A DNA stretch of 42,272 nucleotides from assembly GCF_023035815.1 (NCBI RefSeq), contig NZ_CP073173.1:1-42272 (forward strand), in the 5' to 3' direction. Of the stretch, positions 13,715-42,242 are shown piece after piece. Every line of letters begins with the position of its first letter. Within the stretch, counting starts at the first letter, position 1. The stretch is from Borrelia parkeri (GTDB lineage: Bacteria > Spirochaetota > Spirochaetia > Borreliales > Borreliaceae). The notes beneath the pieces are model-generated. The model was not told where the DNA came from and did not search any database. It saw nothing but the letters and a program-made list of their open reading frames with translations. The position numbers and the translations under genes are program-made.

Positions 13715-13753
13715 AATCTTACTTTTAAGTAATTAATCTAATTATTTATCTTA

Positions 13754-22673: not shown

Positions 22674-22694
22674 ATTTAATTTTTATAGTTAATG

Positions 22695-22730
22695 AGAACA
22701 AAATCGTTCGATATCGAACGATTTTGTTCT
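22695..22730. promoter_or_regulatory. 36-bp perfect palindrome between PF32 and PF49
   Basis: AGAACAAAATCGTTCGAT followed at once by its exact reverse complement, centred between 22712 and 22713, ending 1 base before the AAGGAG of PF49. The core GTTCG-ATAT-CGAAC is matched by GTTCG-GCAC-CGAAC at the same gene junction of the second partition locus. It is a candidate partition site or operator; a terminator is possible but there is no T run after the stem. Confidence 0.7.
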
Positions 22731-22744
22731 AAGGAGTTTTGCAA

Positions 22745-23281
22745 GTGTCAAAAAATATAATTGTTTTAAATGATAGGGAAAAGGGTTTGATGAGCATTTC
22801 GCAAGAGGAAGAATATGAGAATTATAAGTTCGCTTTAAGGAAAAGTATGATCAATGATATTGAAAATAAAATTCAAATAATGGAAATTTTATACAATATA
22901 AAAACCAAAAATCTTTACCTTATTGACGGATATAAAAGTTTTGAGGTGTTTATCAATAAATTTTTGATTAAAAAAACACAAGCATATTCATATTTAAAAA
23001 TATATGAACATGTATTAAGGGGTGATTTAAGTATAAATGATATTAAACAAAGGGGAGTAGTAGATGTTTATAAAAGTATCAAATCAAATGAAGTTACCAG
23101 TAAAAAATCGAAAAAAAATCCAATAAAGCCGTTGCGTTTTCAACTTAAAACAGAGCAAGCATATGAATTTTATAAGAAAAATTCTGAATTTACAAGTTTT
23201 CTTTTAGAAGAGATTTTTAGTAATGAAGGGAACATTTTAGAACAGTTAAAAATCAGATATAGAAATTTAAAAAACAATTGA
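22745..23281 (+). CDS. PF49 partition-associated protein
   Basis: A 178-residue PF49 family protein, the usual fourth gene of Borrelia partition clusters and the presumed ParB-like partner. Features: NDIENKIQIMEILYNIKTKN, LYLIDGYKSFEVFINKFLIK and KKTQAYSYLKIYEHVLRGDL (helix-turn-helix-like), then LRFQLKTEQAYEFYKKNSEF. I start it at GTG 22745 because AAGGAG (22731-22736) is 8 bases upstream; TTG 22739 would be only 2 bases from the site. It lies directly after the palindrome. Confidence 0.87.
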   Translation: MSKNIIVLNDREKGLMSISQEEEYENYKFALRKSMINDIENKIQIMEILYNIKTKNLYLIDGYKSFEVFINKFLIKKTQAYSYLKIYEHVLRGDLSINDIKQRGVVDVYKSIKSNEVTSKKSKKNPIKPLRFQLKTEQAYEFYKKNSEFTSFLLEEIFSNEGNILEQLKIRYRNLKNN

Positions 23282-23351
23282 TTTTATTTGATTTTTAATG
23301 TATTTTAATATTAATTGTGTGGGCATTTAAATCCCATCCTATGTTGGTCAA

Positions 23352-23413
23352 GCTTAAAAGTTTTTAAGCCTTTGTTAACAATTCTCAAAAAGATTTGCTA
23401 ACAAAGGCTTAAA
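23352..23413. repeat. overlapping inverted repeats downstream of PF49
   Basis: Two alternative hairpins share bases. GCTTAAAA-GT-TTTTAAGC lies at 23352-23369. TTAAGCCTTTGTTAAC (23364-23379) pairs at 15 of 16 positions with GCTAACAAAGGCTTAA (23398-23413) over an 18-base loop. It lies 70 bases after the PF49 stop. It may be a terminator or part of the replication origin. A similar 15-base stem with an 18-base loop lies beside the decayed cluster at 38115-38162. Confidence 0.65.
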
Positions 23414-24404
23414 TTTTGACTTTCAAGTTTAATAGTGCAATATTTTTTGTATGATAAAGCCATTTTTGTTAATAATGTTGTAGGTTTTTAGTTTTTGACT
23501 TATTATGATAAATAATCAACATAGAATGTTAATAATGTAAAATACAATCAATATAATAAGTAAAATGAATTTAAGTAATATTGTAGAAGTATTGAAAATA
23601 TATAAGAATATGATATGATGTGAGACCCTTTTGATAGTTTAGAGATAATAGATATATTTTTGTTATAATCATAGAATGATAAATCTAGTATACTTGATTA
23701 TTTTGGAGGGAAATCAAAGCTTGAAACTATAGAGTATTAGATTGGCTTACTTAATAAGTATTTAATAAAGAGAGAGTTTAGTTTGGAAGTAATAAAATAT
23801 TTTGTCATCTTTTTAATATAAGAAAAGTCTAAATATAGTTAAAGGTAACCAAATCTTTTTGGATATGTAGTTATTGATGAACCTTTTAAGTATTCTTTGC
23901 CAGTAAATACAAACTTCCTATTTCATGAGAAGAAAAGTTTCTTTAAGGGGAGGCTTTCTTATATATACTTAATTTTGTAATTTTGAATATTTTTTGTACC
24001 TTATTTGAGGTGATAGGTTTAATGAGTTTAATATATTCTTTAAATAGATTGATATTAAACATCAAAAAATATAACATAGCATCGGTTATTTGCTTGGTTT
24101 TGAGTTAGGATATGTCAAGAGATTTATATAGATATTTGATAGTTTTTGGAAATTACATAAAAATGTAACTGAAGATGACCTTAAAATGAAATTATTTTGC
24201 AAAGTATTTTCTCTTCTAAATCGTATAGGTTTAATGGTTTTTGTAAGTATTCTCTGCAAAATTTAATTTCTTCTCCTCTATGAATCAATTGTTTACTTGA
24301 TGCATTACTTTGACCATTTTGGTAATAAGTTTAATTTATTTTTTATAAGGTGTTTTTTGCTTTACTATTTTAAATCTCTTTTTTTAAATATGCTTTCTTA
24401 ATTT
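23414..24404. other. A+T-rich region without recognisable genes
   Basis: About 1 kb with stops in all frames and no RNA gene that I can identify. A short stretch near 23929-23945 (TCATGAGAAGAAAAGTTTC) resembles the loop region of the DHS. It lies between the partition operon and two dead lipoprotein genes, so decayed coding DNA or origin-flanking sequence is likely. Confidence 0.5.
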
Positions 24405-24495
24405 CATTATGATGAGTTATCATCATTTTTATTATTAAATTGACTTAAACTATTAATTAGTAATGCCGGCATTAAAATAAAATTGATTTTTTCAT
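24405..24495 (-). pseudogene. signal-peptide remnant of an exported protein
   Basis: GGAG, 7 bases, then ATG 24495: MKKSILF-stop; with one base shifted it continues as LMPALLINSLSQFNNKNDDN. It has the form of a Borrelia export signal, broken at its seventh codon and with no body left. The good Shine-Dalgarno shows it was once a gene start. Confidence 0.45.
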
Positions 24496-24617
24496 AACAA
24501 ATCTCCTTATTTTTATTGCTAATTTACTGTAAGTTCTGCTACATGATTTTTCTTCTGAAAGCTTTATTTTAAGATATTCAAATATTCCTTTATTAGTATT
24601 TTTGTAGGACATACTGT

Positions 24618-25026
24618 TCATAATACCTTTAAAAAACTGTTCGATTTATAATCAATAGCATCATTGATATATTGAGCAAAAATTTTATCATTGTCTTTTT
24701 CACTTCTTTTTTTTTGTTTGTATTCGTTAAGCCAGTCAAGAAATTTTGTGTATTTGCTCTTACTTTCATCTTTGCATCCACCAATTTAATTTTGTAATTA
24801 TTAATTACCTGATTCAATGCATGCTTTAAATAGCTAAATTTCTTCTGCTTATCATCAGATAGAGTAAATTTTTTTCTGTTTAGTCAGTTTTATTTGGTAA
24901 TTTATTCAAATTCCTCTTAGATCTATTATGTGGCTGAGCATCAGTAGGTTTTATACTTATATTATATAATTTGCAACAGTTCAAAAGTAATGTGCTGAGA
25001 AGTATTAACCTTGTAAGTTTACTCAT
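24618..25026 (-). pseudogene. decayed surface lipoprotein gene
   Basis: ATG 25026 opens MSKLTRLILLSTLLLNCCK, a lipoprotein leader with lipobox LLNC, then runs to PNKTD-stop. In a second frame it continues KFTLSDDKQKKFSYLKHALN and VINNYKIKLVDAKMKVRANT. In a third it reads KYTKFLDWLNEYKQKKSEKD and IFAQYINDAIDYKS, ending at TGA 24618. At least two frameshifts are needed. The pattern (LS.D..KKF..LK.AL, KF.DWL) is loosely like P35/PFam54 antigens; that assignment is tentative. It is divergent from V14. Confidence 0.5.
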
Positions 25027-25172
25027 ATCAATTCTCTTATCTTTGTAATTTAAACAATATATAGTAATTCTTATTGTGATGTATGAGTTTTTGTGAGTAT
25101 TGACTTGTTTTGTAAAAATTATTCCTTTTTTAACTATTTTGCCCTGATGAGGTAATAAGGAGGCACGTGATA
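25027..25172 (+). promoter_or_regulatory. unique upstream region of vlp V14 (candidate expression promoter)
   Basis: Unlike every other complete cassette, V14 is not preceded by a DHS or bdr spacer. Similarity to archive upstream DNA begins only at about TTTTGCCCT (25137). The unique part holds TTGTGA-N18-TATTGA (25074-25103), an overlapping TTGACT (25100-25105) and a T run at 25126-25131 before the GGAGGCAC. The expressed vmp locus of B. hermsii has a promoter and T-rich DNA before the UHS. The exact promoter is a guess. Confidence 0.4.
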
Positions 25173-26249
25173 ATGAAAAGAATTACTTTTTGTGCGTTAT
25201 TAATGACTTTATTTTTACTTCTTAGCTGTGGAAGTGGACAACTTCAGGCTGAGAAATTGGCTGCTGAGAGTAAGAATACTTTCTTAGATTCATTAGTTAA
25301 GATAGGTCATGGGTTTTATGAGATTTTTGGTATTTTTGGTAATGCTATTGGTGATACTTTTGGATTTACAGCAGTTAAATCGGGTGACAGGAGAAGTAAA
25401 GTTGGTGAACACTTTGAGACTATAGGAGATGGGCTTACAACTACTAAGAATAAGTTAAATGAGCTATCAAATAAAATATCTGAGGCAAAAAATGCCAATA
25501 ACAGCACAATTGAAGCTGTTAAGAGTGCAATTAAAGGTGCAAATGATGTCTTTGAAAAACTAATTGCTGCTTTAACTAAACTTGCTGGGGTTGTTAAGGA
25601 GGCTGGCGATACTAATATTGGTGATGCTAATAATGCTGGTGCTGCAGTTGCTGCTGATAAGGATGGAGTTGACACTATAATTAAAAGTGTGAATGCAATT
25701 ATTGAAGTAGCAAAGAAATCTGAAGTAGAAATCAGTTCTGGAGATGCTGGTGGACCAGTAAATAATGATGCTGGTGCTGCACCTGATGCACTTGGTGGAA
25801 ATGCTCAGGCTGCTGCAGGTTCTGGTCCTAAATTGGTTGATGAGGTGACTAAAGCTGATCCATGGGCTATGATTGATAAAATAAAAGATTCTACTACTTC
25901 TGGTCTTGTTGCTGCCAATAATAACAATGCTGGACAACTAGTTACTGGTGCTGCAAATGCTAATGGTGCTAAGGCAGCTACTAATGCAGACTTAGCTGCT
26001 GCTGTTGCTCTTAAGGCTATGACTAAGTCTGGTAAATTTACTCAACCTGCTGCTAATGAAGATGGAGCAGTTAAAGCCGCTGCTGTAACTGCTGTAAATA
26101 AGGTATTAGGGATACTTGATTTTATAATTAGAAAAACAGTTGCAAGCAATCTAGATAAGATAAGAGAAGCTGTTAAGGGAATACAGTACTCTGAAACTAC
26201 TACTGAGTCAACTGAAGCTAGTTCTACTCAACCTGCTGCTACTAAATAA
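25173..26249 (+). CDS. vlp: variable large protein V14 (vlp, AEKLAAES type), possible expressed copy
   Basis: A 358-residue Vlp with the TFCALL leader allele, lipobox Cys19, [44 protein letters not shown]-type helices, [55 protein letters not shown] and STQPAATK. It is the only intact vlp on the plus strand and the only one with a private upstream region, and a DHS follows it. These points make it the best candidate here for an expression site, although such sites are usually subtelomeric. It could equally be an archive cassette moved by rearrangement. ATG 25173 has GGAGG 9 bases upstream. Confidence 0.92.
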
Positions 26250-26269
26250 ATTATCTATTTAAATAATCT

Positions 26270-26325
26270 ACTAAATAAAGTCATTTGAGGAAAACTTTTC
26301 TTTTTATAAGAATTGTTTTTCTTTT
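26270..26325 (+). repeat. DHS copy 12 (plus-strand orientation)
   Basis: CTAAATAAAGTCATTTGAGG then the AAAAC...GTTTTTC hairpin, 20 bases past the V14 stop. Same structure as the left-arm copies but on the other strand. Confidence 0.8.
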
Positions 26326-26366
26326 ATTTATGTCTTGTCCCTTGAGTAATAAGGAGGCACGTGATA

Positions 26367-26700
26367 ATGAAAAGAATTACTTTAAGTGCGTTATTGATGA
26401 CTTTATTTTTACTTCTTGGTTGTAGGAGTGGCAGTACTAAGACGGAAGATCCTAAAACCACATTCTTAAATTCTATTGCTAATTTAGGTAAAGGGTTCTT
26501 AGATGTTTTTACTTCCCTTTCTGATATGGTTGGAGGTGTTTTAGGTTTTTAATACTACTACTAAAAAGTCTGATGTTGGGAACTACTTTAAAACTATTTA
26601 GGATACTGTATAAGGCACTAAGATATTCTTTGACAAAATTGTTGCTGACATGAAATCTGGAAATAATTCTAATGCTGAGGCTACTTAGACTAGTGTTAAT
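26367..26700 (+). pseudogene. vlp: decayed vlp V15 (VGGVLGF type)
   Basis: A full UHS with GGAGGCAC and the TLSALL leader, LLLGC lipobox, EDPKTTFLNSIANLGKGFLD and [12 protein letters not shown], then a T-run insertion at about 26549 gives a stop. In the restored frame NTTTKKSDVGNYFKTI is followed by TAG, TAA and another TAG within 150 bases ([20 protein letters not shown] lies between). Homology fades at about 26700. Multiple stops show genuine decay. The front combines the EDPKTTF start with the VGGVLGF segment of the EDPQSRF type, so it is itself a mosaic. Confidence 0.85.
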
Positions 26701-27307
26701 GAATTAAATTCTTTTAAGAAGTAAGTATATATAATGTATTTTAATTGAAGAAGATACATAGTTTTAGTATTATATAAACATTATTTATACGGGTATATGA
26801 GTCTAGATAGTTGTAATTTAAAGAGGGATGAATAAAGGTTTTCATGAATTAGGATAAGGATAAGTTATAGTTTTAGATTTTGCTTGATTAGTACTATAAA
26901 GCAGTCTTATATGAAAAATTCAGTATTTACGTAAAGGAAATAGAGAAATTTACTTACAGCGGTATATAATATTACATAGATTTTTACATAGCAAACATGT
27001 TTGGTAGTTGCTATTAAATAGATTCATATTTGAAATTTATTGATTTAGGAAATGATTTGAAGTTATGTAACTACCTTTATGAAGCTAAGTTACTTGAAAG
27101 TATTAGGTATGGTGTTTGATTGAATTAGAGAGTATTTAGAAAAAATAAAAACTTTTCATAAGTTGAATCAATTTTATATATTTTTTAGTTTTTAACAACT
27201 TAGATAAGCTTAAGAAAGCTCTTTTTTTAAGCTATTTGGGTATTTGGGCTACAGATAAGTAATTTGCTTGTTTATTTAAATTTGATTAAATCCATAAATT
27301 ATTTAAT
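26701..27307. other. gene-free A+T-rich stretch
   Basis: About 600 bases between the V15 remnant and the hairpin at 27308. There is no open frame of note on either strand, no similarity that I recognise to the surrounding cassettes, and no RNA gene. It is probably decayed coding DNA. Confidence 0.5.
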
Positions 27308-27354
27308 TTGTATAAGGTGAGTCTTTTGGTTTTGTAAAGACTCACCTTATACAA
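27308..27354. terminator. 19-bp-stem bidirectional terminator hairpin
   Basis: A perfect 19-base stem (27308-27326 with 27336-27354; TTGTATAAGGTGAGTCTTT on the left) over a 9-base loop, 7 bases past the stop of the lipoprotein gene at 27361. The stem is GC-richer than its surroundings. There is no long T run, so termination efficiency is uncertain. Confidence 0.65.
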
Positions 27355-27360
27355 GACTTT

Positions 27361-27879
27361 CTATGATATAGTCTTGTTATTTTGAATATCGAAAGTTGAT
27401 GGTATGACACTCCAAATTTGCCACCATGAAGTAAATGTATTTACAAAGAAAAAATCACTTGATTGATCGTCAATTTTTTTAATCTTTTTATATATCATTT
27501 GAAGTAATACTTTAGTTTTTTTGTTACCAAGTTCGTTGAATAACTCAATTACATTTGTTGCATTATAGGTGTAATTCATATGATCAATAAGATGTTTAAC
27601 TGATGCTTCTTTTAATTTTCTTAAAATATTTTGATCTTTAAGTGATATTATGAAGAAGTTAAGGGCTTGTTTTTCATCTCTATTTAAGTCTAGTTTTAAG
27701 ATTTCATTATTAAATTTTTTCTCAGTCATAATTGCACTGGTATTATAACCTTTAGTATTAGTGTATTTATTTTTGTGTGTATTTAGATCACAGTTAAGAA
27801 AAGTGAAGATAGCTAAAAACATAGTATATATATTTGATATATTATTGATTTTTTTAGTAAAAAGGATCATTTTGTTCAT
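27361..27879 (-). CDS. small lipoprotein with an Mlp-like motif
   Basis: 172 residues. A hydrophobic leader ends MFLAIFTFLNC, a plausible lipobox with Cys at about residue 30; an internal ATG at residue 4 would shorten the leader. A polar linker (TKGYNTSAI) follows. LNRDEKQALNFFIISLKDQN resembles the LT.EQK.AL.FL..AL.D motif of Borrelia Mlp lipoproteins, and LFNELGNKKTKVLLQMIYKK is probably helical. It ends with a Trp-rich WWQIWSVIPSTF segment unlike Mlp. AAGGAAAA precedes the start. Assignment to Mlp is by motif only, so the function is unknown. Confidence 0.6.
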   Translation of the reverse strand: MNKMILFTKKINNISNIYTMFLAIFTFLNCDLNTHKNKYTNTKGYNTSAIMTEKKFNNEILKLDLNRDEKQALNFFIISLKDQNILRKLKEASVKHLIDHMNYTYNATNVIELFNELGNKKTKVLLQMIYKKIKKIDDQSSDFFFVNTFTSWWQIWSVIPSTFDIQNNKTIS

Positions 27880-28170
27880 TATGTTTTTCCTTGAAAATTT
27901 TTTTAAAAAAAATATATAGCAATACTTTAAATTAGTCTAGAAAAAAAGACTTTTCAATAAGTAAATAATGGGATTGTTATTTTATATTTTTTAAAAATTT
28001 TATTTCTTTATCTTTTATTCAGAAATAAGTGATAATGAAGAATAAAGTTTTGAATGTCTATTATATACCATTTCAGAATATTGATTTGATAAAGTTCAAA
28101 TATAATTAAAGTTTAATTAGTATAGGTCCTTCATTAAATATTTAAAAAAAGTAAGTAAGTAAATTAAATA
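27880..28170 (-). other. upstream region of the Mlp-like gene
   Basis: An A+T-rich intergenic stretch with no open frame. It must hold the promoter of the gene at 27361-27879 if that gene is expressed, but I cannot single out -35 and -10 boxes in the A/T background. Confidence 0.4.
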
Positions 28171-28231
28171 ATAAAGTCATTTTAGGAAAACATTTCTCTT
28201 CATGAGAAATGTTTTCCTAAAATGACTTTAT
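28171..28231. repeat. head-to-head DHS pair forming a perfect 28-bp hairpin
   Basis: ATAAAGTCATTTTAGGAAAA begins the left arm (28171-28198). The right arm (28204-28231) is its exact reverse complement, over the loop TTCAT. Each arm is the outer half of a DHS, so two DHS copies meet in opposite orientation 3' of V16. This is the expected scar of an inversion between DHS copies, or a stronger terminator. Confidence 0.8.
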
Positions 28232-28253
28232 TTAGATCTTTTAATTAGGTAAT

Positions 28254-29335
28254 TTATTCAGTAGTAGCAGGTTAAGTAGTACTAACTTCAGTTGCTTCAG
28301 TAGTAGTCTCTGAGTACTGTATTCCCTTAACAGCTTCTCTTATCTTATCTTATCTAGATTGATTGATACTGTTTCCTAATTATAAAATCAAGTACTCCTA
28401 ATACCTTATTTACAGCAATTACTGCTGCTGCTTTAACTGCTCCATCTTCATTAGCAGCGGGTTGAGTAAATTTACCAGACTTAGTCATAGCCTTAAGAGC
28501 AACAGCAGCTGCTAAATCTGCATTAGTAGCTGCACTGCCGGCAGCATTATTGCCATTAGTAGCAGTAGCTAATACTCCGGCTTCAGAATTAGCAGCAGGG
28601 ACAGCAGGTGCAGTAGCCTTAGCATTCTTAATCTTGTCAATAATTGCCCATGGATCTGCTTTAGCAATTTCATCTGCTAGTTTAGGTCCAGCATTAGCAC
28701 CAGCTTGAGCGTTATGAATTAGCGCTTTAGGTACATCTCCATTAGCCACCTGATCCACCAGGATTTCCAGGCCTGATTTCTATGCCAGAATTCTCTGCTA
28801 CATCAATAATTTTCTTTACATTGTCAATTACAGCTTTTACACTATTTTCATCAGCACCTGCAGCATTATTATCAGTCGTTGCATCACCAATATTAGTATC
28901 GCCAGCTTCTTTAGCAACCCCAGCAAGTGTAGTTAGAGCAGCAATTAGTTGTTCAAAGACATCATTTGCACTGTTAATTGCACCCTTAACAGCTTCAATT
29001 GTGCTGTTATTGGCATTTTTTGCTTCAGATATTTTATTTGATAGCTCATTTAACTTATTCTTAGTAGTTGTAAGTCCATCACCTATAGTCTTAAAGTGTT
29101 CACCAACTTTACTTCTCTTGTCATCAGATTTAACAGCTGTAAGTCCAAAAGTATCACCAATAGCATTACCAAAAAAGCCAAAAATCTCTTGAAATCCTTG
29201 ACCTATTTTGATAAGTGAATCAAAGAAAGAAATTTTAGATTCAGCAGCCAGTTTCTCAGCTTGAAGTTGTCCACTTCCACAGCTAAGAAATAAAAATAAA
29301 GTCATCAATAATGCACTTAAAGTAATTCTTTTCAT
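28254..29335 (-). pseudogene. vlp: frameshifted vlp V16 (AEKLAAES type)
   Basis: A TLSALL leader (LFLFLSC), [20 protein letters not shown] and [20 protein letters not shown], open to [18 protein letters not shown]. A frameshift at about 28745-28760 moves the reading to [53 protein letters not shown] and [10 protein letters not shown]. There a missing base and an AAGAT duplication break the frame again, and the last codons contain a TAA before the normal tail (28254). The start has the variant ATGAGGCACGTAATAATG. It follows bdr3, as V2 follows bdr1. Confidence 0.85.
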
Positions 29336-29557
29336 TATTACGTGCCTCATTTTTTACTAAGGGGGGCAAGATGCTTAACAAGCTTTGAACAAAATAAAAA
29401 CAGAAAATAAAAAAATAGATACATCTTTACTTAAAAAGGCTTCTGGAAATGTAACAATGCTCAAAGATAAATTAATATTAATAAAATAATTTATTGGTTT
29501 TGGTAAAAAAATAACTAACATGTAATCAAATAAAGCAAAGGTTTAATTAATTTAAAT

Positions 29558-29980
29558 TCATTTATTTAACAATGAATAGACTATGGACATTAATGTTAAA
29601 AATATTCCTATATTTAGGGTAATAATAGTTCCAAACATCCAACCATGTAGTCTTAGTATACTCTTAAGTTTTGATGTAGCTTTATCAAGTTTACCATCAA
29701 GCTCCACCCTATTAATTTCCATATCTTTTCTAACAAGAGAAACCTCATTTCTAACAATGTCAATCTTATTATCAAGGTCTCTAATATCGGCTTGTAAGGT
29801 TACTTTTACCTTTTCAAGCTTAAGGTTAAAAGTAGTCTCTAAATACTCAATATCCTTGTAAGTCAGTTCATTCTTATAATATCTATAAGATAAATCAATA
29901 GCAATATCTTTACTTATACCAGCTTTAGTAAGTTCATTGATGACCATTTGTTGAGTAACTACTGGTTGTGCAAGTCCCAT
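29558..29980 (-). CDS. bdr: Bdr repeat-motif membrane protein (bdr3)
   Basis: A 140-residue Bdr, the shortest of the three. The N-terminus GLAQPVVTQQMVINELTKAG and NELTYKDIEYLETTFNLKLE match bdr1. The repeat coil is cut to about two DNKIDIVRN-type units (about 70-105). The C-terminal membrane segment GWMFGTIITLNIGIFLTLMS is followed by a longer tail, IVYSLLNK. Length variation in the repeat region is typical of the family. It precedes V16 in the third copy of the bdr-vlp module. Confidence 0.9.
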   Translation of the reverse strand: MGLAQPVVTQQMVINELTKAGISKDIAIDLSYRYYKNELTYKDIEYLETTFNLKLEKVKVTLQADIRDLDNKIDIVRNEVSLVRKDMEINRVELDGKLDKATSKLKSILRLHGWMFGTIITLNIGIFLTLMSIVYSLLNK

Positions 29981-30063
29981 AAAACACTCCTTATATAGGT
30001 ATAATATAATATTTAAGTATTATAGGAACCTTCTTTTAGTAAAATGTGATTTAAGAGAGTCCT

Positions 30064-30165
30064 TAAATCTAACATAAATGTTTAGTCTATTTTTTTTAGT
30101 GTATCAAGAAGCTCAAATGTAGTCTTACCATCAATCTGTTGTTAAAGGATTCCATCACTACGCCT
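30064..30165 (-). pseudogene. remnant of the gene upstream of bdr3
   Basis: The plus strand contains AGTCTTACCATCAATCTGTT and AAGCTCAAATGTAG, matching the remnant before bdr2. On the minus strand this corresponds to QQIDGKTTFELLDTLKKID, with stops around it. Confidence 0.45.
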
Positions 30166-30210
30166 TAGACCTGAGTATTATTACATGAATATTATTACAA
30201 GATATAGATA

Positions 30211-30270
30211 AAAGGAAAACAATTCTTATGAAGAGAAGAGTTTTCCTCAAATGACTTTATTTAGTTATGT
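30211..30270 (-). repeat. DHS copy 13
   Basis: Hairpin block 20 bases past the V17 end, same orientation as the left archive. Confidence 0.8.
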
Positions 30271-30291
30271 ATTTGTTATTAATTCTGATTA

Positions 30292-33579: not shown

Positions 33580-34350
33580 CTATAACTCTCCTTTTTTAAC
33601 TTTTCTAAGCATTTCTTCTAAAACACTTAAAAGACTCCCTACATTACCTTTAATTTTAAAATGAAAATCACTATTATCTTGTCCTTCACAATTAAGAAAT
33701 TTATTCTCAGTATCTATATATTTATTATATGTCTTAGAGAATAAACGATATTTACTATTCTTTAAATCTTTATTGGCAAGACTTAAAGTTAAACTTATAT
33801 TATTTTTTTTATCTTTTATAATACCTATGTAATTAATCAATTCATTATGATCAAAAACAATACATTTACTGCCCAGTAAATTCCCATCTGATATTGATGA
33901 TAATCTATCAAACCCAGAATCAAAAACAAATTTGAAACCTAAAAAACCCAAACCTTTACTCCTTAAGTGCTCATTAAGCCCTTTTACAGTCTTAATACCC
34001 AATTCCCCTAAACAAGCTGAATCTACCAATAAACCAACTTTGCCAAAAGAGAAACTATTAGTTTTGTCTGAACTACTCTCATCAAGACTTCTTCTTGTTG
34101 CAATATGATGGCTGCCCAATACTCGATGGTCAGTCCGTGATGTAGATTCAGACTTAGTATCTACAAATTCAAACTTTAAATCAAGATCTATAGGAAATTC
34201 TTCAACATAATAATACCTATGACTATCAAAAATCACCTCAGCATAATCATTAATAATACCAGATGATGGCTTACTAAACACACCATGACTACAACTAAAT
34301 ACTATAAACAACAAGGTCAAAACAATATTTTTAACAATTTTCACTCTCAT
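33580..34350 (-). CDS. hypothetical lipoprotein
   Basis: 256 residues. The leader MRVKIVKNIVLTLLFIVFSC gives a lipobox Cys20, followed by SHGVFSKPSSG. The mature part has a Ser/Asp/Arg-rich segment (about 70-98) and a probable beta-rich domain with VGLLVDSACLGELGIKTVKG, FLGFKFVFDSGFDRLSSISD and KCIVFDHNELINYIGIIKDK. The composition is far less Lys/Asn-rich than its neighbours. I do not recognise the family. It is probably an outer-surface or periplasmic lipoprotein. The start ATG 34350 is preceded by AGGAGA. Confidence 0.75.
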   Translation of the reverse strand: MRVKIVKNIVLTLLFIVFSCSHGVFSKPSSGIINDYAEVIFDSHRYYYVEEFPIDLDLKFEFVDTKSESTSRTDHRVLGSHHIATRRSLDESSSDKTNSFSFGKVGLLVDSACLGELGIKTVKGLNEHLRSKGLGFLGFKFVFDSGFDRLSSISDGNLLGSKCIVFDHNELINYIGIIKDKKNNISLTLSLANKDLKNSKYRLFSKTYNKYIDTENKFLNCEGQDNSDFHFKIKGNVGSLLSVLEEMLRKVKKGEL

Positions 34351-34635
34351 CTCCTATATAAACTAAAAACCAACCTATACCATGAATACTAGTACACATT
34401 AATAAAAAAACATCCCTCAAATTTGACCATACAGTCTCTCCCCCTCTACCTCTATCGCATTAATATCTGTAATATTCACCAAATTAGCCTTATAGAAAGG
34501 CTAAACTACTCTTTAACATTTACTATATCAATTCATATTAAAATTATTAAGACATTGAAAATCTCAATCTAGAGAAAAAGGCAAATTATGAAAATCTTAA
34601 AAAATAAATGGGCTACTTAAAATTAGGTTATATCT

Positions 34636-34905
34636 TTACTTGTTCTTATTATCATTAAGTCTTTTTTCAAAAAGAAAACTTAAAGCTTTAGATCTTACTT
34701 GAATTTTCTGATTTTTAAGCTGAGTTTCCTTTTCTATATGAACCATCCAATCATCAAGACCTTTATCTGCTCCATACTGCTTTTGGAAATCTCTAAACTC
34801 TCTATCCAACTGTGCAGTAGTGTAATCAACTTGGGCCATAAAATCTTCAATATCCATTTGTTCAGACTTTAAGCTTCTCCTCTTAGGGAACTTAATTACT
34901 TTCAT
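34636..34905 (-). CDS. small hypothetical cytoplasmic protein
   Basis: 89 residues with no signal peptide. The basic front MKVIKFPKRRSLKSEQMDIE is followed by a helical core DFMAQVDYTTAQLDREFRDF and DDWMVHIEKETQLKNQKIQV. AAGGAT lies 6 bases before the ATG. I do not recognise the family. Its position between lipoprotein genes is uninformative. Confidence 0.6.
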   Translation of the reverse strand: MKVIKFPKRRSLKSEQMDIEDFMAQVDYTTAQLDREFRDFQKQYGADKGLDDWMVHIEKETQLKNQKIQVRSKALSFLFEKRLNDNKNK

Positions 34906-35906
34906 ACAACGATCCTTAAACAGGTAAGAATAAAATAAATATTTTCATAATAATAAATTAAAAATACTTATATAGTATATACTATATATTAATCCAAAAA
35001 ACATAATTTCGTAAACTATACTTGTATTGAAACAAAAAATTTTTAGGATACCTACCTTAGTATTTCAAATACCTGTTCAATGAATAATTACTATTATGGT
35101 ATATCTGGATCCACAAATCTCACTACTTGCAGAACAAATCACAATTGAGATAATGTTAATATAAAAGCTCTGATGATTTTAATAATCGTATATTTTTGTA
35201 TAATTTTATGCATAGCATGTTCTTAAACACAACAAAAAAGGATTATTTTCAATTTGTATATATTAAAAAAACTTCTAAGATCCTTATTTAATGCTTAAAA
35301 TACTAATTTCAACTCTATATTTATTCACTGCCAATAAATATTGTAAATATATTCTTATAAGAATAACAATAGCTAAACTTTGTATGTCTATATTCCTTAA
35401 ATAACAAATCAATATAAACATACAAAAACAATTTAATAATTTAAACCAATTATATATGGTGAATATGTTTGTATCCATCGTACATATTAAAAATATCAAA
35501 TGATGTAATTTAAATAGCAATGGCAGCAATGACCCGAGTTAAGTCTAATGTTATAAGGAAATTGATGTTTAAATATTAACATTATTTTAATAATAATGCT
35601 TATCACAAGAACAATTCAACTAATTAAATATTAGTTTTTAAGCCAAAAATTATAGAATGAAATTTTTATATCTATAAAATCCACTCAAAAACCAACACCT
35701 TGAGAACAAATCAAATTTCCTAAAATCATTATTAATGATTCAAATCTTAAAGCCAAAAATAAAATTATATGCACCAATTTAAACATAATAATAAATAAAA
35801 ATTGGTTATTTTAAATTCCAAAAAAATCAAATACCCTACAAAGGTACAGAATTATATCTAAATAACCTAATAATAATTCCCAATTGTACAAAGTTTATAT
35901 ATAAAT
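34906..35906. other. about 1 kb without a supported gene
   Basis: A 20-bp palindrome TATATAGTATATACTATATA lies at 34969-34988, near the promoter region of the gene at 34636-34905. An 81-codon minus-strand frame at 35284-35529 (Leu/Ile/Cys-rich) lacks a Shine-Dalgarno and I do not call it. The rest is A+T-rich and featureless. Confidence 0.5.
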
Positions 35907-36839
35907 TTAATCTTCTCTTATAAGAGAAGATTCTGCAAATTTATAATCAAACGAAGGTGATAAAATCTCAATAGAATTGATATTATCTATACTAGATCTT
36001 ATATCATCATCATTGAAATTAGCATCTATCACAGATAAATATTCATCTAATGAAAGTTCAATTTTTTCCCTTAGATCATTTTTTACTTCTGTATATTCTA
36101 CTTTTATCTCATCATTCATCTTAAATTCAAGTTCTCCGCTATCTAAATTCTCAAAATCTAAAATAAGCTCATTAACAGATTCAAGGTCCCTTATACTGTT
36201 TAAATTTCTACTTATTATATCAAGCATATTTTTGATTTCATCTTCATCTAAGACTAAAATTTTATTTAACTTATCAACCTTACTAGACAAAGCTTTTTCC
36301 AAAAATTCTAATGCTTCTTTCTGTACTTCATTTAGGTTGTTTTCCAATCTTTTTTTACAACTTTCTAATAAATCTTGTTCCAAAATTATTTTTGATACTA
36401 TATCATTGTTATTAAAATCCTCATTTACAATTACTCGTTCACTGATATAGTCTATATCACTTTGTACGGAAGATAATGCACTATCCTGTAACAGATAACC
36501 ATTTAACCTTTCCACTTCCAGAATATCTACTTTCGCAACTTCTTGATCATCTATATGATAGTTTAAAACTCCTTTTTTAAGTGCTCCTTGATCATTATTG
36601 TCTATGTCAGTTTGATTAATATTATTTTTTTCTATTTGTTTTTTACTATCTTTATAATGTTGCCAAATAGATTTGTCTACATGGGACTCATTTTGTTCAA
36701 AATCATTGCTGTTCAAAAGCAGATCCAAACTATCTTCGTAAAACCGGATACCTACATTACCTTTTTTATCCACACTACAACCATTTAAGGTAATAACTAA
36801 ACAAATAACAATACCCGAAAGATTTATCTTAACACTCAT
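35907..36839 (-). CDS. lipoprotein with embedded Mlp-like motif
   Basis: 310 residues. The leader ends VICLVITLNGC (Cys21). The mature protein is acidic and Asn/Asp/Leu-rich. Residues about 168-213 (NLNEVQKEALEFLEKALSSK, then ILVLDEDEIKNMLDIISRNL) follow the Mlp pattern EQK.AL.FL..AL...K..K.L..DE..IK..LD.I...L. Mlp proteins are usually about half this length, so the motif here sits inside a longer protein with its own N- and C-terminal regions (IELSLDEYLSVIDANFND near 265-282). Surface location is predicted; the function is unknown. It is a single gene. Confidence 0.72.
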   Translation of the reverse strand: MSVKINLSGIVICLVITLNGCSVDKKGNVGIRFYEDSLDLLLNSNDFEQNESHVDKSIWQHYKDSKKQIEKNNINQTDIDNNDQGALKKGVLNYHIDDQEVAKVDILEVERLNGYLLQDSALSSVQSDIDYISERVIVNEDFNNNDIVSKIILEQDLLESCKKRLENNLNEVQKEALEFLEKALSSKVDKLNKILVLDEDEIKNMLDIISRNLNSIRDLESVNELILDFENLDSGELEFKMNDEIKVEYTEVKNDLREKIELSLDEYLSVIDANFNDDDIRSSIDNINSIEILSPSFDYKFAESSLIRED

Positions 36840-37030
36840 AAATAATAATTTTTCATTGTACTACAAAATTATAAATTTTAAAACTTTCATTCTCAATAAC
36901 TTAGGGTACCCTCAGTATATAACACTATACACATGTACATCTAAAATGCTATAGAAAACATTCGTGATTGAATTTATGATATCAACAAAAAAAGATAGAA
37001 CTTGAATATATAGATTGCAACTTTTTAACA

Positions 37031-37648
37031 CTACAGTAAACTAAAATTATTAAAAATATCTCTTGCCAAACAGGTTAATATACCAAGTTTTTTAAGCTCC
37101 ATAATTATTAGTTCAGGAAAAGAAGAAATACTTCTTGTAGCATCAGTTATTAAATAAGACTGAAATCCTAAATTATGGGCATCAATTATTGTTTCCTTTA
37201 CACAAAAGTCTAAGGCTAAGCCTACTATAAACACTGCATCAATCCCATTGAATTGAAGATAATCCAAAAGACCTGTTGATTTTTTCTTATTAGAATCATC
37301 ATAAAAACCACTGTAACTGTCATAATTCTCATCCTGTCCCTTTAAAAAAACAGACTTCACTTTATCAATATTTAAATCTTTTGGAAATTCTGCTCCCCAT
37401 GTATTTTTTACACAATGCTTAGGCCAACCTTTACAATTAGCATTACTCAAAAAACTTACATGATTTTCACAATGCCAATCCTTAGTTGCAACAATGTGCT
37501 CAAAGCACTTCTGAAGTTGGTTTACCAAAGGGATAATCTCATTACCTTGAGGAACAGAAAGAGTCCCTGACTCCAAAAAATCGTTTTGGATATCTACTAA
37601 AATTAATGCTGCTTTCTTTAAATTAAAACTAAAAGGGATTCTTCCCAT
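37031..37648 (-). CDS. pncA: nicotinamidase (PncA), isochorismatase-fold hydrolase
   Basis: Hydrolyses nicotinamide to nicotinate and ammonia in NAD salvage, in the cytoplasm. From MGRIPF (ATG 37648) the protein has 205 residues. LILVDIQNDF holds catalytic Asp19; DWHCENHVSF holds the metal ligands Asp57, His59 and His63; FLKGQDENYDSYSGF holds Lys103; VGLALDFCVKETIIDA holds the nucleophile Cys149. All expected catalytic residues are present and the length is normal. GAGGAG lies 17 bases before this ATG, rather far, and an upstream GTG touches the site, so the start is not certain. B. burgdorferi carries pncA on lp25, where it is needed for infection. It stands alone here. Confidence 0.92.
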   Translation of the reverse strand: MGRIPFSFNLKKAALILVDIQNDFLESGTLSVPQGNEIIPLVNQLQKCFEHIVATKDWHCENHVSFLSNANCKGWPKHCVKNTWGAEFPKDLNIDKVKSVFLKGQDENYDSYSGFYDDSNKKKSTGLLDYLQFNGIDAVFIVGLALDFCVKETIIDAHNLGFQSYLITDATRSISSFPELIIMELKKLGILTCLARDIFNNFSLL

Positions 37649-38429
37649 TAAACTGATTATAATCACTCCTCACAGTACTAAGATTATTATCTTAAAATAC
37701 CGTCACTCATATCTGATATAATACAGAACTGTAATTTTAACACAAGAACAAAAATTAAAACACTTAAATTCTATATCTTATAAGTTATTATAGGATAATA
37801 ATCTGATTTAAAATACAGAAATACCTTTATTATTACAATTAATAATCTTAAATTTATTAATTTAACTTCTTTAAGAATATTCACTAAATTAAAATTATAT
37901 ATAGCTAATTATTAGTTATATATAATAAGAATAAAATTAAAACAATAAGACATATAAAATGTTTTTCATTATTTTTAAATCTAAGCAATCTAAGGTTTAA
38001 ATATCTCAAAAAGTCTTCGGGAATTAATATGATGTTTTCCGCCATAATATAACATTCTAGAACTTTTAACTTATATACATATTAAATGGTTTTTCATATC
38101 TTATAGCTAAACTTAAAGGTTTTATTAGGAACTTTACAATTAAAACCCCTAACAAAACCTTTAATTGGTTTTATAATTTCTTTTTCTGAAAGAGTGATAC
38201 GTAAGTGTATCAAACCTTAAATAAACTATACAACAATTTTGTTAATTTTCAAATATCTATGTTTGAAATGAAAGAAATAATTTTTACTAATTTTGTATTT
38301 TTTAAATTATCCTGTGTTTTTTTGAGATATTTGTTAAAACGAATTGTAAAACTTGCTTGTATCTTTGTACAAGTCGATAAAACACTGGTTTTTTGAGGTA
38401 ATAGAAGGGAAAATAATGGACAAAAAGCC
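37649..38429. other. intergenic region with a long imperfect hairpin
   Basis: About 780 bases between pncA and the decayed partition genes. AAAGGTTTTATTAGG (38115-38129) pairs at 14 of 15 positions with CCTAACAAAACCTTT (38148-38162) over an 18-base loop, similar in size to the inverted repeat after PF49 at 23364-23413. Two short plus-strand frames at 38205-38535 overlap the remnants on the other strand and are not supported as genes. Confidence 0.5.
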
Positions 38430-38499
38430 CTTTTTTTTTACGCCTTCCTTAATTGATGTTATAGATATTAGGTATTATTTTTGTTTTTTCTCTATCCAT
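38430..38499 (-). pseudogene. 5' fragment of a third PF32 (parA) gene
   Basis: ATG 38499 opens MDREKTKIIP, then after small indels ITSIKEGV and KKK, matching the MDKKRTKIITIASIKGGVGK start of PF32. Homology ends within about 25 codons. It overlaps the end of the adjacent PF50 by 25 bases, as in the intact operon. Confidence 0.65.
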
Positions 38500-39046
38500 T
38501 TGGTTATTATTTCACCTGATAAATTTTTGTTGTAGAAAGCATATACTTGTTTTTCAATTTCTAGAGTAATGTTTAATAGTTTTTTGTAATATTCAGTGTT
38601 TATTTTATCTTTTCTTAACAAGGAATAAAAGTTCGTAAGATAACATATAATAGAACCTGTCTTAAATCTAAATTCCATACAAACACACCATCTTATGGTA
38701 TAAGACTCATTTTTTTCTGTATTTGTAATGATTAATGGCTTTTGTATTTTTTTGATAGAATAATGAATTCCTAGAAAATCGTCTTCTCCTTTGACACTGA
38801 ATAAATGGAACGTGTATATTTTTTTTTCTTTGTTGGGATTTGAATATTTTTTAAGGGCTATTAAGAATTTTTGTTTTTGTTTTCTGTTGACACCAAATGT
38901 ATAAAAATCATTAAATAATTTTGTGTGATATATTTTTTTTCTTCTATTTTTTCTATTTTATCGAAAATATTCTTGATATTTGCTTGAGATGTGTTTAATT
39001 TAAGAGTTTTTGCTTTTTGTTTTAGTTTTTTGAACAAGTCGTTCAT
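38475..39046 (-). pseudogene. PF50 gene with one frameshift
   Basis: MNDLFKKLKQKAKTLKLNTS through DKIEKIEEKK is in frame, then one base is lost or gained in an A run near 38936. The other frame carries YHTKLFNDFYTFGVNRK, YTFHLFSVKGEDDFLGIHYS, MEFRFKTGSIICYLTNFYSL and LEIEKQVYAFYNKN through to IEKKQK. Apart from this homopolymer indel it is full length, so a sequencing error is possible. Confidence 0.75.
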
Positions 39047-39059
39047 TTTTATTCCTTAG

Positions 39060-39812
39060 ATTTAGAATAATTAATTTAGGATTTGCCTAGTATTTCTAGG
39101 AGATCATAGTAGTATTAATTATTTTATTATAATTTAGATTGTTTGTTTTATCTAGATATTGCTTTAGTATTGGTACTAAGGTTTTGATTTCTGCCTTTTT
39201 TTTAAGTTGTTCAAGTAATATACTGAATATATTATTTCTAATATTGTCTTTATTTTTTTTATTTGCTTCTTTTATTGTTTTGTTTTGGTCTTGGTATTTT
39301 TTGTTTTTACTTACGACATTGGTTTTGTAGTTATGATTTTTGTGTATTTTATTTAATTTTTCTTTTGGTTTTGTATTATTTATATTATTTATACACTCCC
39401 ATTTTTCTTCATTGATATTTTTTGAACACAGATATTTATGAACTCTTGCATTAAATTTTTTTCTCTTTTTGTTTTAAAGTATGAGTTTATTTTGTGATAA
39501 CATTTATTTTTGGGATATTTGAGTTGATAATAAATTTCTGTTCCATAGTTCTTTCCTAGATGTTTATAGTAGTTAATAGTTATCTGTAATTCTTTTTCTA
39601 ATTTGTATAAGTAGCTTTGGAGTGTTTTAATCTTTATAATTTTTTGACCATTTCTTTTCAGATTATTATTAAAGTAGTAAAGTATATTACTTTGGGTATA
39701 TTTTTTTAAATTTAAATTCATATAATTTAGTGTTGATATTAGTACTATCAACTTATGTTGATGCTTATTAAATTTTTTTTTCTTTATTATGAGATTTTTT
39801 TAAGATTTCCAA
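39060..39812 (-). pseudogene. PF57 gene with large internal deletion
   Basis: Starts at TTG 39812 with AAGGAG 8 bases upstream: KKSHNKEKKFNKHQHKLIVL, then ISTLNYMNLNLKKYTQSNIL and TLQSYLYKLEKELQITINYY. A frameshift near 39430 turns NEEKWECINN into SMKKNGSV-stop. In the new frame, after a deletion of roughly 100 codons compared with PF57 at 20275, NIRNNIFSILLEQLKKKAEI and LVPILKQYLDKTNNLNYNKI follow, then stops. Nonfunctional. Confidence 0.75.
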
Positions 39813-39952
39813 TTGATTTACTCCTTCAAAAAAAGCTGTGGGCATATTATATATGAAAGATTATATTTTGTCAATAATATGTTTTTATTGCTTAATAAAT
39901 TTTGCATAGAGAGTCAGTATTTGTTTAAAATAATAACTAAACTATTGAATTT

Positions 39953-40525
39953 TCATATTTGTTTTTTAGATTTTGCCATACTTTTTTCAAAGTCTTTTTT
40001 TGTTTTTTTTATGTATTCTTTGTCTTGAATAAAGATCCTTTCCATAAGGAAACAGGTGAATTGTTGGTTTGTTTTGTAAAAGTTGTAAGCATCTTGGTCT
40101 TTAAGTTGCAGTTTAATTGATTTGATTAAATTCGATGTCTTTTGTTTGTTTTGCGTTTCTTTAGTTGATAGAAAAAAATATGTGTTCATTATTCCTTTTT
40201 CAATTATGGATTCTTCGTTGATTAAGTTGTTCTTGAGACCTTCTGCAATAGCTAGATATGTATAAACTTGGGTTCTGGCTAGATTATAATTTTTGATAAA
40301 TGTGCTAAAGTTTTTATATCCGTCTAATTTGAATAATTTTTTGTCATTAATTTCTTTTAATATTTTCATGGTTTCTATTTTGTTGTAGATATCTTCTTGT
40401 AGGTTTATTTTAAGTTTTGCTTTTAATTTTTCGTAAGTTTGCCTATTGATATCATTAATATTTTCTTGGAGAGAGTTGTTTTTTTCAATAATCCTTTTAT
40501 TTAGTTTAAATTTGTTCTTTTTCAT
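39953..40525 (-). CDS. second PF49 partition-associated protein
   Basis: 190 residues from ATG 40525 (AGGGAG 8 bases upstream; the frame opens earlier at 40552 inside the palindrome, but has no Shine-Dalgarno there). KLKINLQEDIYNKIETMKIL, LFKLDGYKNFSTFIKNYNLA, RTQVYTYLAIAEGLKNNLIN and IKLQLKDQDAYNFYKTNQQF match the PF49 at 22745 in order. The N-terminal 25 residues differ. It overlaps the PF32 stop by 20 bases. Intact, so it probably works with its own PF32. Confidence 0.87.
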   Translation of the reverse strand: MKKNKFKLNKRIIEKNNSLQENINDINRQTYEKLKAKLKINLQEDIYNKIETMKILKEINDKKLFKLDGYKNFSTFIKNYNLARTQVYTYLAIAEGLKNNLINEESIIEKGIMNTYFFLSTKETQNKQKTSNLIKSIKLQLKDQDAYNFYKTNQQFTCFLMERIFIQDKEYIKKTKKDFEKSMAKSKKQI

Positions 40526-41282
40526 ATAATCTCCCTGAAATTTGTTCGGCACCGAACAAATTTTTTAATGCTTTTTTGTAGTCTGATGTGTCGTCTTCGT
40601 TTAAAGAAAATCCAATATTTTGTGCAATTCTTTTATTTAAATCCTCTCTCTCTCTTATAGATCCAATAAAATTAGAATTTTGTTTTAGAATATCTAGGTA
40701 GAATTTATTTGAATTATTATTTTTAAGTCTGGTGTTTAATATATATATTGGTAAGTTTAGGTCCAATTGTTTAACTTTAAAGTTAAGAGCCTCTAGACTT
40801 TCTATAGACCATTTTTCGGCGGGAATTGGAGATATAACAAAGTTAGAAACAACAAGAGCATTAATTAGTGTAAAATCTAAGCTTGGATTAGTATCAATTA
40901 TTATGTAATCATAAGTATTTTTAATAAAATAAAGTGCTTTTTTTAGTCTGGTTTCTTTGAATGGTAAATTATCGTTATTAAAAAAGTGTAAATTTAAGTA
41001 ACTAGGGATAAAATCTAAATTTTGATTTATATTGCAAATACTATTATTAATATCCAGATTTTTTCGTAAGATTTCATATATATTTGTATTTTCTACATTG
41101 ATTCGTGCTTTTTCAAGATATTCATTAAAGTAACTTGTAAGACTTGCTTGAGCGTCCATATCAATTAGTAAGACGCTAAAATTTTTAGAGATAATAGTAG
41201 AGAAAAGAATGGCAGAAGTACTCTTTCCCACTCCTCCTTTAATTGATGCTATGGTTATTATTTTTGTTCTTTTTTTATCCAT
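40506..41282 (-). CDS. second PF32 ParA-type partition ATPase
   Basis: 258 residues. Walker A is IKGGVGKST (14-22), the complete consensus including Thr22, unlike the PF32 at 21912. LLIDMDAQASLTSYFNEYLE is A', and YDYIIIDTNPSLDFTLINAL is Walker B with the following loop. The C-terminus FGAEQISGRLYEKEQI is encoded across the 26-bp palindrome. No PF57 is in front, only a PF50 remnant, so the locus is incomplete, but PF32 and PF49 are both intact and could give the plasmid a second partition or incompatibility specificity. Confidence 0.93.
   Translation of the reverse strand: MDKKRTKIITIASIKGGVGKSTSAILFSTIISKNFSVLLIDMDAQASLTSYFNEYLEKARINVENTNIYEILRKNLDINNSICNINQNLDFIPSYLNLHFFNNDNLPFKETRLKKALYFIKNTYDYIIIDTNPSLDFTLINALVVSNFVISPIPAEKWSIESLEALNFKVKQLDLNLPIYILNTRLKNNNSNKFYLDILKQNSNFIGSIREREDLNKRIAQNIGFSLNEDDTSDYKKALKNLFGAEQISGRLYEKEQI
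40538..40563. promoter_or_regulatory. 26-bp palindrome at the second PF32/PF49 junction
   Basis: AAATTTGTTCGG-CA-CCGAACAAATTT, 12-base stems. The core GTTCG-GCAC-CGAAC equals GTTCG-N4-CGAAC of the palindrome at 22695-22730. It lies inside the last codons of PF32 and 13 bases before the PF49 start. It is a candidate binding site for a partition protein. Confidence 0.7.
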
Positions 41283-42182: not shown

Positions 42183-42242
42183 ATTAGATAATAATTTTAA
42201 AGAGAAAATCCTGAAAGTGATGAGAAATTAAATATATTTTGC

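What the first reader, a model, noticed from the sequence alone, without database searches (positions are those of the whole stretch)
22695..40563. Conserved palindrome core GTTCG-N4-CGAAC at both PF32/PF49 junctions: candidate partition site
A perfect 36-bp palindrome (22695-22730) and a 26-bp one (40538-40563) lie immediately before PF49 in two divergent partition loci. Their flanks differ but the core matches exactly, in one case even inside the PF32 coding end. Such placement suggests a bound site (a parS-like centromere or operator for PF49, PF50 or PF32) with locus-specific flanks giving specificity. I know of no defined Borrelia plasmid parS.
Basis: partly seen in the sequence, partly recalled or inferred. 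Interest (0 to 1): 0.8.

Follow-up and report, generated by a model that had tools for sequence, protein, structure and literature searches.

The report
Plasmid-specific centromere candidates in Borrelia
Most partition loci examined on Borrelia plasmids carry, just before the gene called PF49, a short mirror-image DNA site whose letters differ from one plasmid type to the next and are probably read by the PF49 protein, which could explain how one cell keeps many different plasmids apart.

Summary
Both palindromes are real, but GTTCG-N4-CGAAC is not a conserved core: 12 of 213 distinct PF32/PF49 junctions hold it. What is conserved is a dyad at one place. 173 of 213 junctions exceed the 95th percentile of shuffled sequence, 142 the 99th, and the signal is confined to about -120..+60 of the PF49 start. 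Plasmid types differ in a 14-16-bp palindrome, mostly framed nTnC...GnAn: 110 distinct cores among 195 junctions. Of 1294 within-genome locus pairs 8 share a core, 2 on different contigs. Half-sites change symmetrically (80 events) and without G.T bias. Core bases covary with the predicted PF49 recognition helix (78, 82, 85) and residue 106, although PF32 columns correlate too and single residues predict poorly across distant clades. Best reading: type-specific parS-like sites read by PF49, a ParB-like adaptor. They work like repABC parS but are not of that family. Binding, partition and incompatibility are untested. Eight literature searches showed no Borrelia plasmid parS.

The parts
20275..21366 (+). 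PF57/62 gene (Borrelia_orfA), putative replication initiator, locus 1
   Evidence: PF02414 E 1.4e-97; PF57/62 = PF02414 as in PMC6945570
21376..21936 (+). PF50 gene (DUF226), locus 1
   Evidence: PF02890 E 1.8e-54; PF50 = PF02890 as in PMC6945570
21912..22673 (+). PF32 gene (ParA-like ATPase), locus 1
   Evidence: AAA_31 PF13614 E 9.9e-36
22695..22730 (.). Perfect 36-bp palindrome; candidate PF49-binding, parS-like site, locus 1
   Evidence: 18-bp arms, no loop; similar junctions in B. hermsii, B. turicatae and B. miyamotoi plasmids, B. miyamotoi read
22706..22719 (.). 14-bp core GTTCGATATCGAAC
   Evidence: only copy at up to 1 mismatch in 664 kb of the own genome's plasmid DNA
22745..23281 (+). 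PF49 gene (GTG start after AAGGAG), locus 1; predicted HTH with helices 66-71 and 77-92 (the latter the putative recognition helix)
   Evidence: PF01672; AlphaFold2 pLDDT 86.6; start chosen
39389..39751 (-). PF57/62 fragment downstream of PF49, locus 2
   Evidence: PF02414 model positions 6-123 of 288 only
39953..40525 (-). PF49 gene, locus 2
   Evidence: PF01672 E 3.5e-23; start chosen
40538..40563 (.). 26-bp inverted repeat inside the PF32 3' end; candidate PF49-binding, parS-like site, locus 2
   Evidence: 12-bp arms, 2-nt centre
40544..40557 (.). 14-bp core GTTCGGCACCGAAC
   Evidence: only copy at up to 1 mismatch in 664 kb
40506..41282 (-). PF32 gene (ParA-like ATPase), locus 2; its end carries the palindrome
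   Evidence: AAA_31 E 8e-35

Best explanation
Plasmid types of Borrelia carry, about 33 nt before the PF49 start, their own 14-16-bp palindrome (frame nTnC...GnAn, mostly GTnC...GnAC; inner letters type-specific) that PF49 binds as a symmetric dimer through a helix-turn-helix. PF49 would act as the ParB-like adaptor, the site as the centromere (parS), and PF32 (ParA-like ATPase) would move the complex. Because the inner half-site and the PF49 recognition helix diverged together, many partition systems can coexist in one cell without cross-binding, so the PF49/site pair would be a plasmid compatibility determinant. Binding may also autoregulate PF49. Shown here by computation: the sites, their position, symmetry, type specificity, uniqueness in one genome, and covariation with PF49. 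Inferred: PF49 binding, dimer geometry, the PF32 interaction, partition and incompatibility.
For: Dyad enrichment: 173/213 above the 95th and 142/213 above the 99th shuffle percentile; first members of PF49 clusters above the 95th: 70 of 91 at 80% identity, 40 of 56 at 70%, 31 of 38 at 60%. Localisation: 66% and 61% of windows at -120..0 and -60..+60 of the PF49 start, at most 8% at other offsets, 4.9% of random own-plasmid windows. Centre to PF49 start median 33 nt, IQR 30-41, n=159. Half-site changes on the PF32+PF50 tree: 129 left, 122 right, 89 on the same branch, 80 identical and symmetric. Core mismatches A.C 28 vs G.T 26: no RNA-wobble preference. Fourteen own-genome cores searched in 664 kb: exact copies only at their own loci; contigs C3 and C4 share one. 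Within genomes 8 of 1294 pairs share a core, 2 on different contigs. Top columns by MI: h3 PF49 T78 z 8.5, h5 PF49 S82 z 6.4, h7 PF49 V106 z 9.0. Tree-controlled: S82-h5 best of all columns on both trees (1.8e-7, 6.3e-6); S82 and V106 are the top two for change anywhere in bases 3-7 on both trees. Residue 82 vs base 5: N->A 25/26, R->C 14/15, E->G 13/14, K->A 6/6. Predicted helices 66-71 and 77-92. Four of nine PF49 frames without a separate upstream PF32 keep a dyad.
Confidence: 0.66

Rival explanations
1. Operator only: PF49 (or another regulator) binds the dyad to control PF49 expression within the operon, and the real centromere lies elsewhere.
For: The centre is tied to the PF49 start (median 33 nt), close upstream of its ribosome-binding site. 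Self-regulation by centromere-binding proteins is common (recalled).
Against: The promoter scan of window 22560-22800 found 2 weak matches against 1.3 in shuffles, so no clear promoter for the dyad to control. In L196 the (imperfect) dyad at 1117-1130 lies about 20 nt upstream of an 11/12 promoter match at 1152-1181. Such strong type specificity with hardly any shared core per genome is more than simple autoregulation needs.
Confidence: 0.2
2. The dyad is read by PF32 (ParA) rather than PF49.
For: Many PF32 columns correlate with core type and core width, several ranking first.
Against: The PF32 correlations are spread over the protein, as joint inheritance predicts, whereas the PF49 ones concentrate on the predicted recognition helix (78, 81, 82, 85) and residue 106. 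Three PF49 genes lacking an upstream PF32 keep a related site.
Confidence: 0.07
3. RNA hairpin (terminator, attenuator or stability element) between PF32 and PF49.
For: The longest examples (arms up to 33 bp) would form stable hairpins; flanks stay symmetric for several bases beyond the core.
Against: No terminator-like site in 22560-22800. Many cores are 14-16-bp palindromes with no loop. G.T mismatches (26) are no commoner than A.C (28). The letters covary with a protein helix, which a hairpin does not predict.
Confidence: 0.05
4. Chance or mutational palindromes (quasipalindrome correction) without function; type sharing only reflects common descent.
For: Templated correction could also give symmetric changes in long arms. 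Palindromes with arms of at least 10 bp are not rare: 8 in the window.
Against: Confined to one interval next to PF49 in hundreds of loci, with a shared outer frame and recognition-helix covariation.
Confidence: 0.02

Closest known systems
repABC parS sites of Alphaproteobacteria (PMC9040568, passages read)
   Same: [quoted passage not shown] parS sites are incompatibility determinants. Five of 110 Borrelia cores match GTTNNNNGCNNNNAAC literally.
   Different: Different host phylum and initiator (PF57/62, not RepC); the window's PF49 gave no RepB/ParB family match; core width varies 14-16 bp.
ParB/parS of chromosomes, and the Borrelia chromosomal ParB/parS and ParA/ParZ systems (PMC9712426)
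   Same: ParA-type ATPase with a centromere-binding partner encoded next to it; [quoted passage not shown]
   Different: The window's PF49 is 178 aa with no ParB N-terminal domain detected; the 14-bp cores differ from a parS-like GTTTCACGTGAAAC (sequence recalled) at 4 or more positions. PF49 was not compared with ParZ.
Type I plasmid partition loci with small centromere-binding proteins (e.g. E. faecalis RepB/RepC)
   Same: ParA plus a short unrelated DNA-binding adaptor; PMC9039534 compares lp17 bbd21 with RepB (passages).
   Different: Those centromeres are mostly arrays of short direct repeats (recalled); here there is usually one palindrome, two in the cp26 type.
PF49 / Plasmid_parti PF01672 of Borreliaceae
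   Same: This is the protein family itself; [quoted passage not shown]
   Different: No target site was given in the passages read; PMC9039534 calls the role of PF49 unknown.

Membership tests
ParA/centromere-binding-protein/parS partition systems | ParA-type Walker ATPase in the operon | tested here: met
   PF32 matches AAA_31/CbiA in both loci
ParA/centromere-binding-protein/parS partition systems | Small DNA-binding protein encoded beside parA | tested here: inconclusive
   PF49 lies next to PF32 and its model has an HTH arrangement, but this is a prediction and no structural relative was significant
ParA/centromere-binding-protein/parS partition systems | Centromere-like repeat or palindrome at the par locus | tested here: met
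ParA/centromere-binding-protein/parS partition systems | The adaptor binds the site specifically | not testable with these tools
   Only covariation seen
ParA/centromere-binding-protein/parS partition systems | Site confers stability in cis and incompatibility | not testable with these tools
   Only near-absence of shared cores within genomes
ParB proper (ParB/Srx CTPase domain plus HTH) | N-terminal ParB/Srx domain | tested here: not met
   The window's PF49 matches only PF01672 and, weakly, DUF7717 at E<=1 in Pfam
ParB proper (ParB/Srx CTPase domain plus HTH) | ParB-like HTH fold | tested here: inconclusive
   [not shown]
repABC replicons | parS consensus GTTNNNNGCNNNNAAC | tested here: not met
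   Both window cores are 14-mers; 5 of 110 distinct cores match
repABC replicons | repC initiator in the same operon | tested here: not met
   Initiator gene here is Borrelia_orfA PF02414; no RepC among Pfam hits of the 9 window proteins scanned
Intrinsic terminator | GC stem followed by a T run | tested here: not met
   0 found in 22560-22800
Chromosomal ParZ family | Homology of PF49 to ParZ | not tested
   ParZ sequence was not fetched
PF49 / Plasmid_parti (PF01672) | Match above the curated cut-off | tested here: met
   104.8 and 82.4 bits vs 22.1; all 91 aligned members match the family

The most novel reading that the evidence does not exclude
Borrelia runs a large set of mutually orthogonal centromeres: dozens of PF49/palindrome pairs (110 distinct cores in the sample) diverged by paired change of recognition-helix residues (78, 82) and residue 106 with half-site bases (3, 5, 7), so that plasmid compatibility groups are written in a readable protein-DNA code and coexistence of over ten replicons in one cell rests on it.
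Probability: 0.45. Interest if true: 0.87.

Novelty: new variant of a known kind. Interest (0 to 1): 0.76.

Why it matters
How Borrelia partitions and keeps apart its many plasmids is an open question. Papers seen here call the role of PF49 unknown or merely likely ParB-like, and none of the passages gave a plasmid parS. The result names a concrete 14-16-bp site for most plasmid partition loci examined, a reader protein, and residues likely to set specificity. Centromere function and plasmid compatibility, so far typed mainly by PF32, become directly testable with short oligonucleotides and natural proteins.

Tried and rejected

Weak or superseded tests: leave-clade-out prediction of bases from single residues was weak, partly because single linkage made one giant clade. 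The first covariation run gave undefined values and was redone (then 59). The motif-weighted scan used weights learned from the same data, so the enrichment claim rests. The within-genome count of zero duplicates was made after identical regions had been dropped and is replaced. The sister-pair test compares pair sets of unequal divergence (0.72 vs 0.88), so only ranks are used.

Sampling: 229 loci were taken of 404 PF49 matches in 33 of 36 genomes (my sum of the table); weak and broken matches were mostly left out. 222 PF32/PF49 junctions (two of them the window's, also present as L012 and L015) gave 213 distinct regions; 9 PF49 frames had no separate upstream PF32. 18 of 213 junctions were dropped before covariation, mostly by a hand-made list, and the core frame was set by hand in 6; 182 of the remaining 195 had PF50 and entered, using 54 representatives. 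Nine named plasmid junctions were read of the 60 listed and the 9.
Full report
OBSERVATION. The window is one contig (C15, 42,272 bp) of a 17-contig Borrelia genome, of relapsing-fever type judging by its genes; close named plasmid records are from B. turicatae, B. hermsii, B. puertoricensis, B. venezuelensis and Candidatus B. fainii. Locus 1 reads PF57/62, PF50, PF32, PF49 on the plus strand; locus 2 on the minus strand has PF32 and PF49 and only a PF57/62 fragment. The 36-bp palindrome at 22695-22730 is perfect. The 26-bp one at 40538-40563 has 12-bp arms and a two-base centre. The 14-mer pattern shared by the two is found twice in the window; 0.05 were expected at up to one mismatch.

IS THE CORE CONSERVED? 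No. In the own genome most PF32/PF49 junctions have a palindrome, but with other letters in each. I collected 229 PF49 loci (of 404 matches in 33 of 36 genomes of the family) and recovered 222 PF32-PF49 junctions, 213 distinct. GTTCGNNNNCGAAC is in 12 of 213. The window's own type in B. miyamotoi reads GTTCAATATTGAAC, with one base pair changed on both arms and the symmetry kept.

IS THE DYAD REAL? With a scan that knows no motif, 173 of 213 regions exceed the 95th percentile and 142 the 99th percentile of the best score in shuffled regions. After collapsing relatives at 80% PF49 identity, 70 and 63 of 91 first members do; at 70% 40 and 35 of 56; at 60% 31 and 27 of 38. The signal is confined: 66% and 61% of windows at -120..0 and -60..+60 of the PF49 start pass the 99th-percentile score, at most 8% at any other offset between -900 and +720, and 4.9% of random own-plasmid windows. 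The centre lies 33 nt before the PF49 start (median, IQR 30-41, n=159), and in 58 of these 159 it lies inside the PF32 reading frame. Of nine named plasmid junctions read, six have clear dyads (B31 cp26 and cp32-3, B500 lp38, Am293 lp54, B. miyamotoi lp66, Candidatus B. fainii p42), lp36 has an imperfect one upstream, N40 lp25 is weak and 297 lp28-5 has none.

ANATOMY. Cores are 14, 15 or 16 bp (59, 79 and 40 of the 178 above the 99th percentile, whose weights were learned from these data). Among 110 distinct cores 69 have GTnC...GnAC on both sides and 101 have nTnC...GnAn. Symmetry continues outward and fades: 81% complementary at the first outer pair, 27% at the 16th. The cp26 type carries two palindromes in tandem (own contig C14). 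On the PF32+PF50 tree, half-sites changed 129 times on the left and 122 on the right; 89 of these fall on the same branch and 80 are the same change. Core choice favours symmetry, so part of this is built in, but comparisons such as B. miyamotoi are direct. Of 102 mismatched pairs among 1358, A.C (28) and G.T (26) are about equal, which argues for recognition as DNA rather than as an RNA hairpin.

TYPE SPECIFICITY. I searched 14 own-genome cores in 664 kb of the own plasmids (contig C17 has no clear core and was not included). Exact copies lie only at their own junctions, with these exceptions: contigs C3 and C4 share one (assembly redundancy possible), the C14 type is a tandem pair, and contig C5 holds its locus at both ends. 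A two-mismatch variant of the C2 and C3/C4 cores lies on C4 beside a partial PF49. Of 1294 within-genome locus pairs 8 share a core, 6 of them on one contig. In genomes with at least 8 loci the rate is 6 of 1232 within (1 on different contigs) against 89 of 12,134 between genomes.

WHO READS IT. PF49 was modelled with pLDDT 86.6 as an all-helical protein with helix 66-71, turn and helix 77-92, as in a helix-turn-helix (domain alone pLDDT 90.5). In 54 representatives the strongest correlate of half-site base 3 is PF49 T78 (z 8.5; K85 6.6), of base 5 PF49 S82 (6.4), of base 6 PF49 Y81 (6.4, nearly tied with others) and of base 7 PF49 V106 (9.0); bases 1 and 4 and core width are led by PF32 columns. 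Residues 78, 81, 82 and 85 would lie on one face of the predicted recognition helix. With the tree taken into account, S82-base 5 is the best of all columns of the three proteins on both trees (1.8e-7 and 6.3e-6), and S82 and V106 are the top two for change anywhere in bases 3-7 on both trees; but PF32 Y170 leads base 3 and PF32 columns lead base 4 on both trees, and PF32 H114 and N229 lead bases 6 and 7 on the PF32+PF50 tree. In sister pairs V106 ranks 1, PF32 102 and 110 rank 2-3 and S82 ranks 4 of 496 columns; several of the next columns lie in PF32 96-120, possibly a partner-recognition region. Counts: residue 82 N with base A 25 of 26, K with A 6 of 6, R with C 14 of 15, E with G 13 of 14, L with G 16 of 19, but D and A mixed; residue 78 S with C 39 of 49, T with T 49 of 77; residue 106 N with T 18 of 20, R with C 24 of 31, H with A 10 of 12. 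Two PF49 groups with K82 both read GTACAC; other K82 groups read CCAG or TCAG, also with A at base 5. Across strict clades a single residue predicts little better than the commonest base at 65% identity and mostly no better at 55% and 50%, so this is a lead to a code, not yet a code.

PF49 WITHOUT PF32. Of nine PF49 frames with no separate PF32 upstream, three Lyme ones keep a dyad about 270-300 nt before the PF49 domain: GTTCGGAGCCGAAC in L229, the imperfect GTTCAGAACCGAAC in L196 and L209; in L196 it lies about 20 nt ahead of a good promoter match. One (L068) is a PF32-PF49 fused open frame with the palindrome inside it. The other five are decayed, truncated, show no intact site, or (L202) have a 63-bp repeat array. 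This ties the site to PF49 and weakens an operator-only reading, but on few cases.

MECHANISM. Most likely PF49 is the centromere-binding adaptor of the PF32 ATPase and the dyad is its parS; its N-terminal segment has a nearly invariant arginine (R11) that could stimulate the ATPase, as in other adaptors (inference). Autoregulation may be a second function. Shown: site, symmetry, position, type specificity, covariation. Not shown: binding, partition, incompatibility.

KNOWN OR NEW. The arrangement resembles repABC parS (GTTNNCNGCNGNNAAC; [quoted passage not shown] an incompatibility determinant; passages of PMC9040568). It is not a repABC system (no RepC found; consensus not met by the window's cores). 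PMC10406323 suggests PF49 is ParB-like, PMC9039534 calls its role unknown, PMC9712426 describes chromosomal ParZ, and PMC5870499 and PMC3303823 describe the partition cluster without a site in the passages found. All papers were seen as search passages only (also PMC13155636, PMC12958805, PMC10481545, PMC2674063, PMC9158201, PMC6945570), plus one section of PMC9712426. PMC2674063 cites Dunn et al. for two tandem inverted repeats near a promoter on cp8.3; this may be an early sighting and I could not read that paper. Literature searches that showed no Borrelia plasmid parS; most subscription papers are not in the library, and the Chaconas and Norris review was not held.

Noticed in passing
L068:1313-1341: PF32 and PF49 form one open frame of 441 codons with the palindrome inside the coding sequence: a natural fusion or a sequencing frameshift.
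   Followed up: partly
L202:2-1292: About 20.6 copies of a 63-bp repeat directly upstream of a PF49 without an adjacent PF32; 8 of 21 units hold a quasi-palindrome GTCCAGTAAACTAAAC on the minus strand, possibly an iterated site.
   Followed up: partly
L196:1152-1181: Second inverted repeat TTGACACAAATTTTAACTTGTGTCAA downstream of the dyad, overlapping a promoter-like match on both strands; with small changes also in L209 and L229.
   Followed up: no
L265 (own contig C11, first 20 kb of 29.5 kb): Phage-like plasmid (judged by eye from the ORFs: a 1119-residue tape-measure-like protein, a terminase-like protein, tail-fibre-like proteins) with no PF49 match.
   Followed up: no
window 28170-28232: 63-bp inverted repeat with 29-bp arms and 5-nt loop outside the partition loci; other long ones at 13678-13715 and 42142-42183.
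   Followed up: no
window 22197-22271 (PF32 residues 96-120, locus 1): A PF32 stretch (columns 96, 99, 102, 103, 110, 114, 115, 117, 120) changes together with plasmid type and core across the junction loci; candidate partner-specificity region.
   Followed up: partly
L005 and L006: Own contigs C3 and C4 share an identical PF32/PF49 junction, unusual within one genome; perhaps duplicated assembly or a fusion plasmid.
   Followed up: no
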